NCBI GenBank assembly: GCA_009741485.1
Contig: CM019227.1
Span: 11,261,647-11,325,646, forward strand
DNA length: 64,000 bases
Origin: Malurus cyaneus samueli
Taxonomy: Eukaryota > Chordata > Aves > Passeriformes > Maluridae
Reading direction: 5' to 3'
The notes below the pieces were generated by a model, which worked only from the letters and a program-made list of their open reading frames with translations, had not been told where the DNA came from and made no database searches. A program made the position numbers and the translations under genes. Positions 6,780 to 44,472 of the stretch are shown piece by piece; position 1 is the stretch's first letter, and the number at the start of each line of letters is the position of its first letter.

Positions 6780-8959
6780 GGTTAATCCCAATGGTCAGAA
6801 TAAAATCTCGGCTTCAAATACGCACAGCGCTTTTGGAATATGCCATTTATGTCTGGATCAATCACAGATTATCAAAAACTCCCTAAAGCATTATGTGGGG
6901 GGGATTTTTCCTCCCCTTTCATTAAATACTAAACTGCAACAATGAGAAGTCCAAATGAGCTAAGGTGACATTCTTTTATAGTAAAAAGCATTGCTCTCAC
7001 ACTCAGCTCTCTCCCTCTTAGAACCTCCCTTATTTTTCACTCTTTGTTAGTCTTTCATGATTTTATCAGGCAAGTTATAGATATTTTTCCCTTGCACACT
7101 GATGGCCTCTAGGAATTACCTGAACTACATTTGATTTGAAAGTCTGTATGCATCCACGTGACACACAAGGCCAAAAAATCCTGTTATAAGCACGGTGAAT
7201 TAAATGTTTGCATGGCACAGCATGAGCCTGAAGGAATCCCAAAAGACACAGAAATATGGAGACTCCAGATTTAAACCTCAGATTGTTTTTCTGAAGCTTT
7301 TCCTTTTCTCTCAGTAATCAGACTGGCTGTCCCACTGAACTTTTAGAGATCTAAAATGAGGTGTGAAGAAAAATATCATGGGAAAAAATAATTATAATCT
7401 GTGTGTTGTTATCTTCCTGTCATTGTGCAGTGGAGCCTCTGTCATCTTTTCTTCCTATTACTGTCACCCAAGCTCTCAGTTAAGAATAAAACTTCATTTT
7501 TTCAAAGAAGTCCTTGCATGGCCATGTGGGAATGTCCCTCTGGTGGCTTACAAGCTAAGAACCTTTTACCTCTAGTCCACTATTGGTTTTGGCCAGTGAG
7601 TTTATTTTCAGGGACTGGTTTGGTTTGGTTTTTTCCTTAGTATATAAGATAACTTCTAAAAACAGTGTCCTTCTGCCCTTTTGAAAAAGTAACATTGTTT
7701 TAAAAACAAATTCCTGAACTCAGCAGACAGAAAATCTGCTTTCTGTCTAGGATATCCATATTAGCTTATGATACAATTGAGCCTTAGATGTCTCAATGCT
7801 TTTTATTTGCAAAGTTGTATTTCAGGATCAGCCCTTCTCTTTGTGTAACTGACTGTGCTCCCACATGAAGAGCACCAATTGTGGCAATGTGCAGGGTCAG
7901 AGGGACCTCTCACATCCCCCAGTCCCACACCTGGACCAGGCTCCCTCTGGATGCAATGCAGAAGTGTCCCAAACAGGGAGACAGCCTGACCTGGATGCAT
8001 CAGGCACTTCTCAGCTCATCTCAGGCTGCTCAGACACAGCTATGAAGTCAGTAGAACTTTAGGGTCAGGTTCAAAAAAGCTCTTTTCTGTGGCTTTAGAG
8101 TAAAAAGTTTTGAAGAGGGGAGGTAGGCAACAATTCCAGTTCAAACTAGGTGATGTGTGTTTGTTTCTTCTGGATGTTTCAGTGCAAATCCAGGACAGCT
8201 GCGTATCCCAGAGGAACCCTCACAAGCACGGGGCTCTGGTTGTTGGTTTGGTTTTGTTCTCTGAAAAGGTTCAGACCTTCAGGGAAAGATCTTTTGAATT
8301 TGACTGCACCTCTGCAGGGATCTGAGAGTTCAGTTGCCCTTGCAGTGTCTTTGGTGGTGAACACGTGGAACCTTCAGCTTCCACAAGGCTTTCCTTGTTT
8401 GTCCTGACAGTGGAAAGCCATCGCCTCTTCTCTTGAGAAAATTTATTAATGAAAGATGAGACTTTACATTTCACAGTAAAAAATTAATGCTCCACCAGCA
8501 ACTGCTGACAGCTCACAGCTTGGAAAGGTGAAGCAGCAAAACCTAACTTCCAAAGGAACATTCTTTACAAGTGTTTGTCTCAGAACCATTCATATCTTCC
8601 TGAAAATTCAAATCACACTAAGCTCCAAGTCCCCTGTGTTCAGAGCTTTTAAAAGGAGACGTATTTGGAGGATAATTTTCTGCACTGAGCTCTGAGGGTA
8701 TCTGACAAGTGTCAGGACATGCAGTCTCCTTAAGTCTGGATGAATAACATTGCTGAAGCTTCTTTCTAGGAATGTCTGCTGATAATCTGGGCCCACTCTG
8801 CTCAACAGTGTAGCAAGGATTTAGGCTTGACAGAGACAAAAACCAACTTGTATGGGATCATTCAAGGTGCAGGCTCCTGTGCCTTGGTGCCAAGGGTGGA
8901 GTGATCGACACATCACACACAGGGAGGGTCTTGGGTGCCTGAAAAACTGTTGCCTTGAA
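6780..8959. other. unannotated unique sequence, no gene seen
   Basis: Directly right of the poly-T, positions about 6780-6890 are compact, non-repetitive and look like possibly constrained non-coding DNA, but this is only an impression. Open frames are at most 85 codons. No domain, RNA gene or repeat was recognised. Confidence 0.45.
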
Positions 8960-9390
8960 CGGGCAGTTTTTAATAATGACACAGATACGGTTAAAGGGAT
9001 AAAAAGGGCTTTACCTCGGTATTTGGGATCCCAGGTGCACAACTTGATGGCAGAAAGCACACCCATGTACAGCACGGGGACAAGTTTTACAGGTTTCAGG
9101 AATTAGCATATCTATCTAGGATTCTCCAATAAGAAACTTAACAAATGCAGTGATGTCCCCCTATTCTAATGAATACTCCCCAGATGAGGCCAGAGCCCAG
9201 TTTACACAAGATGTTCTGGACAGAAGGCTTCACCCAAGGCTGGAGCCTCAGGTTTAAGATAGCACAGGACACGCTGATCTTTTCTTCAGGATGTTTGGTC
9301 CCTCTGCCCAGCAGAACTCTTAAACTAAGTTGGAATATCAGGCTTTAGGAATTACAAGCATTTGGGCTACAGGTGGATGCATAGAGGGTA
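8960..9390 (-). mobile_element. possible decayed LTR of an endogenous retrovirus
   Basis: On the minus strand this segment has LTR-like character: an inverted CCAAT box (CTTATTGG on the minus strand, about 9128-9135), then a block reading GTGCACCTGGGATCCCAAA and CCGAGGTAAAGCCC, which resembles the R/U5 end of avian retroviral LTRs as I remember them. There is no attached gag, pol or env coding sequence, and neither clear TG...CA ends nor a target-site duplication could be defined. At best it is a solo, eroded LTR. The identification rests on recalled similarity, not on an alignment. Confidence 0.4.
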
Positions 9391-9874
9391 CAGAAAGAGT
9401 GAAAAAAAAAAAATCACCTGCTGCACCCGTGACTGAGCAGCAGCTCCGATCCCTGCAGAGCCACAGGTGACATTCACAGAGCTCTCCCATGAACGCCCCT
9501 CACTGCTCTGACAATTCACCTGCCTGCTCCTTCCCTATCCAGAACAACAAATGGCACAGTTTCACAGCTCAGAACAGTTCCTCCTTTGAGCTGGTGTCAA
9601 TTTTCCATGTGACCATCCTATCTGAAGGTGGTTTGTTCCCAGCTGTACCCTCCCTTTGTGAAATGGGAGGGGGAGGTCTGGAGGATACCAAAACTGGACA
9701 AAGTGTTTGAAATGTGGGCACACAGCAGATTTATACAGCTGCACAGCAATGCTTTCTGGCTCATTCTCCTGTCTTTTCCTAGCAATTACTCCCATTCTAG
9801 CTGGGGTTTTGGTTTGGTTTGTTTCGCTTTGCTGCTGAATTGACAATATAATGGATAGTCCTATAAAACCACTC
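9391..9874. other. unannotated unique sequence
   Basis: Starts with an A12 tract at 9402-9413. A minus-strand open frame runs through here (part of a 168-codon frame from 10068 to 9562), but only its amino-terminal part, to the right of this interval, resembles a protein. The portion here looks like chance read-through. Confidence 0.45.
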
Positions 9875-35130: not shown

Positions 35131-35336
35131 CTCCAGCAGCACCCACCTTTCCTCCATCACGGAGAAGAACAGCCAATTCTCTCCAGCAGCACCCACCTTT
35201 CCTCCATCATGGGCAAGAACAGCCAATTCTCTCCAGCAGCACCCACCTTTCCTCCATCATGGAGAAGAACAGCCAATTCTCTCCAGCAGCACCCACCTTT
35301 CCTCCATCATGGAGAAGAACAGCCAATTCTCTCCAG
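35131..35336. repeat. 50-bp minisatellite, 4 copies
   Basis: Four head-to-tail 50-bp units at 35131-35180, 35181-35230, 35231-35280 and 35281-35330, plus a CTCCAG remnant. Each begins CTCCAGCAGCACCCACC and ends AGAACAGCCAATTCT. Units 3 and 4 are identical. Units 1 and 2 differ from them at one and two bases respectively (CATCACGGAG; CATCATGGGC). Because 50 is not a multiple of three, the reading frame shifts each unit and all plus frames stay open for up to about 140 codons, so these open frames reflect the repeat and not a gene. Confidence 0.95.
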
Positions 35337-43658: not shown

Positions 43659-43688
43659 CATCATCTTCCTGGAGCCAGGAAGATGATG
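43659..43688. repeat. perfect 14-bp inverted repeat at left edge of CpG array
   Basis: Arms CATCATCTTCCTGG (43659-43672) and CCAGGAAGATGATG (43675-43688), separated by only AG. With a 2-nt centre this is almost a perfect 30-bp palindrome and could extrude as a cruciform. The arms contain back-to-back ETS-type cores (TTCC / GGAA). It abuts the first tandem unit within about 3-10 bp, which suggests it belongs to, or helped nucleate, the array. Confidence 0.93.
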
Positions 43689-43690
43689 CT

Positions 43691-44472
43691 TACCCTTGCC
43701 AATATGGCGGCCCGCCCTTCCCAATATGGCGGCCGCGCATGCAGATACCCTTCCGCCCTTGCCAATATGGCGGCCCGCGCATGCGCGGTAGCCCTTGCCC
43801 TTGCCAATATGGCGGCCGCGCATGCGCGGCAGCCCTTTGCCCTTCCCAATATGGCGACCGCGCATGCGCGGTAGCCATTTGCCTTCCCAATATGGCGCCC
43901 GCATGCCCTACATTTGCCTTCCCAAATGGCGCCGCGCATGCGCGGCAGCCCTTTGCCCTTCCCAATATGGCGACCGCGCATGCGCGGTAGCCATTTGCCC
44001 TTCCCAATATGGCGGCCGCGCATGCGCGGTAGCCCCTTCCTTGCCAATATGGCGGGCCATGCGCGGATAGCCCTTGCCCTTGCCAATATGGCGGCCGCGC
44101 ATGCGCGGTAGCCCCCCCCTTCCAATGGCGGCCGCGCATGGCGCAGCCCTCCCTTGCCAATATGGCGGCCGCGCATGCGCGGTAGCCCTCCGCCCTTCCC
44201 AATATGGCGGCCGCGCATGCGCAGTAGCTCCTCCGCCCTCAAAGATGGCGGCCGCGCATGCGCGTAGCCTCTGCCCTTGCCAATATGGCGCCGCGCATGC
44301 GCGGTAGCCCCCGCCCTTGCCAATATGGCGCCGCGCATGCGCGTAGCCCCCCCGCCCTTGCAAATATGGCGGCCGCGCATGCACGGTAGCCCCTTGCCTG
44401 GCCAATATGGCGGCCACCCATACTCGGTAGCCCCTTGCCCTCGCCAATATGGCAAGCCCAGGTGCCTGCGAG
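43691..44472. repeat. CpG-dense tandem array with YY1/NRF1/CCAAT-type motifs, about 20 units
   Basis: Unit starts (at AATATGG or its equivalent) are 43701, 43723, 43764, 43806, 43848, 43889, 43924, 43964, 44006, 44046, 44085, 44124, 44159, 44201, 44241, 44282, 44322, 44363, 44404 and 44446, giving spacings of mostly 39-42 bp. The consensus reads CCAATATGGCGGC, then CCGCGCATGCGCGG, then TAGCCCTTGCCCTTG. ATGGCG is kept in 19 of 20 units, CCAAT in about 17, and the exact NRF1-type core GCGCATGCGC in 12. Unit 15 has the strict YY1 form AAGATGGCGGC. Units at both ends are degenerate, as in arrays homogenised from the centre. In a CpG-poor neighbourhood this forms an isolated CpG island. The motifs are read directly; YY1, NRF1 and NF-Y binding is inference. 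The minus strand lacks stop codons in all three frames through the array (open to 264 codons), which reflects base composition and is not evidence of a protein. Confidence 0.95.

What the first reader, a model, noticed from the sequence alone, without database searches (positions are those of the whole stretch)
43691..44472. Tandem array of combined CCAAT/YY1/NRF1-type sites forming an isolated CpG island
About 20 units of roughly 40-42 bp each join a CCAAT sequence, an ATGGCGGC YY1-type core and a GCGCATGCGC NRF1-type core. Such sites are normally found singly in housekeeping promoters. Clustered YY1 sites in CpG islands are known at mammalian imprinted loci such as Peg3, and birds are not known to imprint, so a comparable bird array would be notable. 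The typical 42-bp spacing is close to four helical turns, which would place repeated sites on the same DNA face. It could be a promoter, insulator, lncRNA start or methylation-sensitive switch, or just an amplified promoter fragment.
Basis: partly seen in the sequence, partly recalled or inferred. Interest (0 to 1): 0.85.

Follow-up and report, generated by a model that had tools for sequence, protein, structure and literature searches.

The report
Dispersed CpG-rich YY1/NRF1 satellite array
A short stretch of repeated DNA packed with promoter-type protein-binding sites is one of several copies scattered through this genome; it probably descends from a longer CpG-rich satellite repeat and appears, unusually, to have escaped the mutational decay that methylated repeats normally show.

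Summary
Window 43691-44472 is a tandem array (about 18-20 units, mostly 40-42 bp) with 11 YY1-type and 12 NRF1-type consensus sites (chance 0.03 and 0.00); it is the window's only CpG island. The CCAAT does not fit an NF-Y consensus, and helical phasing is weak.

It is not a lone element. The same unit forms eight array blocks at seven loci of this genome, and no sequence is shared next to the arrays of different loci. It very probably derives from one module of a second family found here: a 238-bp, CpG-rich satellite with two YY1 sites and one NRF1 site per unit, on at least 13 contigs. The window array keeps one stretch spanning both parental modules.

CpG sites in seven of eight blocks show no excess of deamination-type changes; the block on unplaced contig C644 does. 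I read the arrays as satellite-derived orphan CpG islands, unmethylated in the germ line, probably through NRF1/YY1 occupancy (inferred). A six-frame Pfam search found no domain in the 64-kb window. Nothing here supports imprinting, insulation or promoter function for a host gene. A young, neutral minisatellite remains the main rival.

The parts
43691..44472 (+). Whole array as given; core tandem block 43714-44453, 42-bp period, 18.4 copies; only CpG island of the window
   Evidence: TRF; unit listing and CpG statistics; wraparound alignment span 740 bp
43701..44414 (+). 11 YY1-type sites AANATGGCGGC (first starts 43701, last ends 44414), all one orientation; 10 are AATATGGCGGC, one (44242) is the canonical AAGATGGCGGC
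   Evidence: the DNA search: 11 found, 0.03 expected
43776..44343 (+). 12 NRF1-type palindromes YGCGCATGCGCR
   Evidence: the DNA search: 12 found, 0.00 expected
44191..44264 (+). Stretch that aligns across both YY1 modules of the 238-bp satellite (query 3-86, 82%), read as a remnant of the step from satellite to array
   Evidence: BLAST of the satellite unit against the own genome, place C114:11305837-11305910, E 5.9e-12; alignment shown
43659..43688 (.). Perfect 14-bp inverted repeat with a 2-base loop directly left of the array; whether it belongs to the element is uncertain
   Evidence: the repeat finder, pair I10; not tested against chance

Best explanation
The array is a copy of a small dispersed tandem-repeat family that is homologous to one YY1-NRF1 module (about 39 bp) of a 238-bp CpG-rich satellite and probably arose by amplification of that module; it was spread as multi-unit pieces to seven loci where it expanded locally (family, homology and clustering are shown; direction of descent and way of spread are inferred). 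In the chromosome-arm copies, this one included, the CpG-dense units behave as orphan CpG islands: NRF1 and YY1 bind their sites, keep the DNA unmethylated in the germ line and so protect the CpGs from deamination (inferred from the substitution pattern). Any transcription or effect on a host gene would be a by-product; no host-gene role is indicated.
For: Same 31-mer with up to 3 mismatches: 167 places in the own genome, reversed-pattern control 0; 163 of 167 fall in the regions I fetched, and 125 of 126 for a gapped NRF1-YY1 pattern. With arrays masked, none of 11 between-locus BLAST matches has both sides within 1 kb of an array. Spacer variants are shared by up to seven of eight blocks, yet a unit's nearest relative lies in its own block in 51% against 18% in 30 label shuffles. 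Satellite: the 42-bp unit aligns with 35 of 39 identities to its first module, score 58 against at most 33 in 2000 shuffles; satellite matches on 13 contigs. CpG transitions in seven blocks 24/3020 against 37/3939 at other C/G sites (p 0.60); in C644 16/177 against 8/230 (p 0.02); C644 against the seven p 8e-11. Transition variants seen in at least two units, per column: seven blocks CpG 0.10, other C/G 0.15; C644 0.50 and 0.16. Satellite on C1: CpG transition rates 0.000, 0.004, 0.025 in three pieces against 0.020, 0.025, 0.035 at other C/G. The 2-kb flanks have CpG o/e 0.07-0.29, except one C644 flank at 0.86, so ordinary sequence here does lose CpG.
Against: No methylation, binding or expression data. 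Non-CpG substitutions at the retained columns are about 1%, with transitions no commoner than transversions, so part of that baseline may be alignment or assembly noise, which weakens the comparison. Units are not independent. 121 of 484 unit passes were dropped for more than 8 edits or missing columns; the unfiltered column table also shows no C-to-T excess at CpG. With column 25 and all other columns and blocks counted, CpG transitions are slightly commoner (86/3529 against 143/6658), largely through one variant amplified in C67. Single satellite copies on C178 and C644 have slightly more CpG than non-CpG transitions (0.060 against 0.041, 0.068 against 0.050). In the C1 satellite the column-based test is marginal (p 0.055, 0.03, 0.12 at three thresholds). 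GC-biased gene conversion could slow C-to-T fixation. Short spacer variants could recur independently. Descent could run the other way.
Confidence: 0.6

Rival explanations
1. A recently spread, neutral GC-rich minisatellite: the CpGs survive only because the arrays are young and homogenised, and the factor sites are a relic of the promoter-like satellite.
For: Retained columns outside the shared-variant ones differ by only about 1% per change class between units; spacer variants are shared between loci, so dispersal may be recent; the stretches left of the two C71 blocks are 99.55% identical.
Against: Age alone predicts CpG transitions several-fold above other transitions (about tenfold, recalled); the ratio is 0.85 in seven blocks and 2.6 in C644. 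The C1 satellite pieces, with more non-CpG change, also show fewer CpG than non-CpG transitions, though the single copies on C178 and C644 do not.
Confidence: 0.28
2. The array is a selected host regulatory element: a promoter, lncRNA start, insulator or methylation-sensitive switch comparable to the YY1 clusters of Peg3 or Gnas.
For: Motif density and CpG-island character; conserved tandem repeats with YY1 sites are reported in the DMRs of Peg3 and at Gnas (PMC3091771, passages). One sister array lies about 2.5 kb 3' of the GALK2 last coding exon.
Against: Seven loci without shared flanks and with differing break phases; no Pfam domain in six frames of the 64-kb window; the arrays are separate from other CpG islands; core constancy cannot be told from recency, because much spacer variation seems to predate dispersal.
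Confidence: 0.08
3. Assembly artefact or contaminant.
For: Frequent short deletions at doubled bases suggest consensus errors; the C1 satellite borders a run of N.
Against: Eight blocks in seven contexts without shared flanks; no match in phage records or viral contigs, and one isolated match in Rhizobium among prokaryote contigs.
Confidence: 0.03

Closest known systems
Clustered YY1 sites in tandem repeats of mammalian imprinting control regions (Peg3, Gnas)
   Same: Tandem repeats carrying YY1 sites in CpG-rich regulatory DNA (Peg3 and Gnas as described in PMC3091771, passages)
   Different: Here a dispersed satellite-like family with NRF1 palindromes, no associated gene detected in the window, no evidence of allele-specific methylation
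CpG-rich macrosatellites such as D4Z4 (search listings only)
   Same: CpG-rich tandem array; the listings count YY1 in those papers, which were not opened
   Different: D4Z4 has 3.3-kb units (start of an abstract); here 42-bp and 238-bp units
Avian CNM, PO41 and sate-21 satellites (PMC9974502 passages; PMC4301066 passages)
   Same: Short-period avian satellites; some copies of the 238-bp unit sit inside an AT-rich repeat of roughly 20-22 bp
   Different: The unit carries YY1/NRF1 motifs and keeps its CpGs; the chicken paper describes large hypermethylated tandem arrays on the W. CNM and PO41 unit sequences were not in hand, so identity with the AT-rich partner was not tested
NRF1/YY1-type housekeeping CpG-island promoters (recalled)
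   Same: Same consensus motifs, adjacent, in a CpG island
   Different: Amplified in tandem, with no gene start detected nearby in the window

Membership tests
Dispersed satellite/minisatellite family | Head-to-tail copies of one unit | tested here: met
   TRF and wraparound alignment
Dispersed satellite/minisatellite family | Same unit at several unrelated loci | tested here: met
   Seven loci; no between-locus match next to the arrays
Derivative of the 238-bp satellite | Sequence homology to a module of the unit | tested here: met
   35 of 39 identical, score 58 against max 33 of 2000 shuffles; spanning match in the window
Derivative of the 238-bp satellite | Direction of descent (238 bp first) | tested here: inconclusive
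   Satellite-like G at column 5 seen only in C644 (1 of 19) and the window (1 of 15) among retained units; no outgroup
CpG-island promoter | GC and CpG criteria plus YY1/NRF1 sites | tested here: met
CpG-island promoter | Gene or transcript start | not testable with these tools
   No expression data; no Pfam hit in the window
Imprinting control region of the Peg3 type | Clustered YY1 sites in a CpG island | tested here: met
   11 sites
Imprinting control region of the Peg3 type | Parent-of-origin methylation and expression | not testable with these tools
   no methylation or reciprocal-cross data
NF-Y (CCAAT box) site | RRCCAATSR context | tested here: not met
   0 on the array strand in eight blocks; consensus recalled
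Germ-line unmethylated CpG island | No excess of CpG transitions (indirect sign) | tested here: met
   seven of eight blocks including the window; C644 fails
Germ-line unmethylated CpG island | Measured low 5mC in germ cells | not testable with these tools
   no methylation data

The most novel reading that the evidence does not exclude
A vertebrate satellite family that acts as a self-protecting CpG island: by carrying dense NRF1 and YY1 sites it stays unmethylated in the germ line, escapes the usual satellite silencing and CpG decay, and may serve as an internal promoter that transcribes the AT-rich satellite arrays in which some 238-bp copies sit; its 42-bp derivative then seeds new orphan CpG islands on chromosome arms.
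Probability: 0.25. Interest if true: 0.78.

Novelty: new variant of a known kind. Interest (0 to 1): 0.5.

Why it matters
Vertebrate satellites are usually methylated and lose CpGs (recalled). A family that keeps them at unrelated loci gives natural replicates for asking whether factor-site density alone is enough to make and keep a CpG island, with the decaying C644 copy as a contrast. It also warns that a YY1/NRF1 cluster in such a genome need not mean an imprinted or housekeeping promoter.

Tried and rejected
Viral or bacterial origin: 0 matches in viral contigs, 1 isolated match in Rhizobium in prokaryote contigs, 0 in phage records. A transposon carrying the array: with arrays masked, 22 fetched stretches gave 11 between-locus matches, none with both sides within 1 kb of an array (the earlier list was cut at about 120 rows), and boundaries fall at different unit phases. 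Known RNA genes: no Rfam match at gathering score in the window or in five satellite-related loci. Host gene for the window: no Pfam family at 1e-3 in six frames of all 64 kb; small or unusual exons could be missed. Selection on the motif core from its low variation: dropped, because spacer variants are shared across loci and so seem to predate dispersal. Fixed helical phasing: weak. Literature: ten paper searches; the two for the unit letters and for a 238-bp bird satellite listed no paper; four on YY1/NRF1 repeats or satellites listed 1, 0, 0 and 3 papers, none about such a family by title (not opened, and only open-licence papers are held). In PMC9974502 'YY1' does not occur in the main text.

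Full report
What is there. The window array is real and far beyond chance. TRF reports 43714-44453 with a 42-bp period and 18.4 copies. Eleven AANATGGCGGC and twelve YGCGCATGCGCR sites are present, all inside the array, against 0.03 and 0.00 expected in shuffles. The names YY1 and NRF1 are assigned from recalled consensus sequences. GC is 0.67 and CpG o/e 1.01 in a window with 0.42 and 0.17, and two scans found no other CpG island in the 64 kb. The CCAAT does not sit in an NF-Y context on the array strand in any block. Spacing is 41 (6), 42 (5) or 40 (3) in 14 of 20 intervals, and vector strength at 10.5 bp is only 0.33-0.42. Over the chromosome-arm loci together the modal spacing is 42: 85 of 248 GCATGC intervals of 26 to 59 bp, C644 not included. 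No Pfam family was found in six frames of the window.

A family, not a single element. In the window's own genome (1.07 Gb, 1295 contigs) a 31-base unit consensus with up to three mismatches occurs 167 times, with 0 for the reversed control (the list of places was cut, the count is whole). Of these, 163 lie in regions I fetched, and so do 125 of 126 places of a gapped NRF1-YY1 pattern; the remaining one, C101:1453003, is a lone pair outside the arrays. The blocks are C67, C71 (two), C101, C104, C114 at 6.4 Mb, C644 and the window, 0.74 to 6.1 kb long. C67 contains a stretch of about 1.2 kb without a profile match, and C644 has a further small block of about five units (L016:9681-9887) that I left out of the unit counts. 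With the arrays masked, 22 fetched stretches gave 11 between-locus matches; none has both sides within 1 kb of an array. Within C71, a 2.7-kb stretch left of both blocks is 99.55% identical. Boundaries fall at different points of the unit, and C104 begins with inverted, head-to-head units. The C104 block lies about 2.5 kb 3' of the last coding exon of GALK2; the block at C114 6.4 Mb lies about 9 kb from a GPCR reading frame whose best matches are orexin and other peptide receptors. Pfam scans of the sister loci covered 10 of the 21 fetched stretches.

How it spread. Spacer variants recur across blocks: CCCCTTGCCCTTG in seven of eight, CCCCCGCCCTTG in seven of eight. Yet nearest relatives are in the same block in 51% of units against 18% in 30 label shuffles. 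The simplest reading is spread of multi-unit pieces that were already variable, then local expansion; such short variants might also have arisen more than once. Either way, low variation in the core cannot be taken as proof of selection.

The larger satellite. The canonical form AASATGGCGGCYGCGCATGCGC gave 27 places, many about 240 bp apart. These belong to a 238-bp tandem repeat with 36 CpGs, two YY1 cores 51 bp apart and one NRF1 palindrome in its consensus. BLAST of one unit gave 130 matches including the 42-bp arrays; strong matches beyond the shared module lie on 13 contigs (C1, C29, C42, C56, C89, C121, C178, C505, C530, C644, C969, C1035, C1079). On C1 there are two stretches, about 1158.0-1160.8 kb, starting at a run of N, and 1172.7-1175.9 kb. 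The 42-bp consensus aligns to the first module with 35 of 39 identities, score 58 against at most 33 in 2000 shuffles (the shuffle dealt out two-base blocks, so it does not keep full dinucleotide statistics). In the window, 44191-44264 spans both modules and holds the array's only canonical AAGATGGCGGC. Copies on C178 (L051), C29 (L050) and C644 (L016) sit beside or inside AT-rich repeats of about 20-22 bp. I infer that the 42-bp array arose by amplification of one module; the reverse is not excluded.

CpG decay. I aligned all blocks to the circular 42-bp consensus and kept 363 of 484 unit passes (all 42 columns, at most 8 edits). In the seven blocks other than C644, transitions at nine CpG columns were 24 of 3020 against 37 of 3939 at twelve other C/G columns (p 0.60). 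In C644 they were 16 of 177 against 8 of 230 (p 0.02), and C644 differs from the rest at CpG with p 8e-11. The window block alone had 2 of 146 against 4 of 196. Column 25 was left out of that test, and spacer columns with shared variants too; C67 carries a shared G-to-A variant at column 25 (39 of 95 gapless units). With every column and all eight blocks counted, CpG transitions are 86 of 3529 against 143 of 6658, a slight excess. Counting variants rather than cells, column 25 included, the seven blocks have 0.27, 0.10 and 0.04 CpG transitions per column (seen in at least one, two, three units) against 0.28, 0.15 and 0.07 at other C/G columns; C644 has 0.80, 0.50 and 0.30 against 0.53, 0.16 and 0.16. 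C67 is the weakest of the seven: 87% of its CpG pairs are intact, against 92-99% in the other six and 75% in C644. In the satellite on C1 the CpG transition rates were 0.000, 0.004 and 0.025 in three pieces against 0.020, 0.025 and 0.035; by columns, transitions in at least one, two or three units occur in 3, 0 and 0 of 72 CpG columns against 11, 6 and 4 of 83 (p 0.055, 0.03, 0.12). Copies on C178, C29 and C644 had 0.060, 0.034 and 0.068 against 0.041, 0.050 and 0.050, so two of these three go slightly the other way. Flanking DNA (2 kb) has CpG o/e 0.07-0.29, except one C644 flank at 0.86, which holds a piece of the 238-bp unit.

Mechanism. That NRF1 binds only unmethylated sites, and that bound factors can keep CpG islands unmethylated, is recalled; a paper looked for by DOI was not held. 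On that basis the arrays are best read as orphan CpG islands maintained by their own sites. Shown: array, family, homology to the larger satellite, no CpG excess in seven blocks, decay in C644. Inferred: germ-line hypomethylation, factor occupancy, direction of descent. Not shown: any transcript or effect on a gene.

Limits. The substitution baseline is low and transitions are no commoner than transversions, so noise contributes. Many deletions at doubled bases may be assembly errors. Biased gene conversion could favour C and G, though it should act on CpG and non-CpG sites alike. No other bird genome was available. The 84-base search for further, more diverged arrays did not complete, so the count of seven loci is for arrays with units close to the consensus.

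Noticed in passing
43659-43688: Perfect 14-bp inverted repeat with a 2-base loop directly at the left edge of the array.
   Followed up: partly
43851-43878, 43967-43994 and other units: Each unit holds an imperfect palindrome of up to 28 bp (ATGGC...CCGCGCATGCGCGG...GCCAT), so single strands of the array could fold back at every unit.
   Followed up: no
1958-2017: Ten copies of AACCCT (telomere-type hexamer) inside the window.
   Followed up: no
35131-35336: Four copies of a 50-bp unit, 96% matches.
   Followed up: no
L011:2642-5320 and L011:7317-9998 (C71): Duplicated stretch at 99.55% identity, one copy left of each C71 array block.
   Followed up: partly
L014:4150-4290 (C104): Inverted units meeting head to head at the left end of the C104 array.
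   Followed up: no
L048:2091-2917 (C1): A 23-bp minisatellite, about 35 copies, begins shortly after the 238-bp satellite ends.
   Followed up: no
L016:3440-4020 (C644): Degenerate roughly 20-bp repeats containing TGACATCA, near the C644 array.
   Followed up: no
L051, L050, L016: Copies of the 238-bp unit beside or inside an AT-rich TTTTGGGG/GGGGAAAA repeat of about 20-22 bp; relation to PO41, CNM or sate-21 untested.
   Followed up: partly
window 8948-9416 and L026:1629-2108: An 88% identical stretch of about 480 bp shared with a flank of C71, about 34 kb from the window array; probably a dispersed repeat.
   Followed up: no
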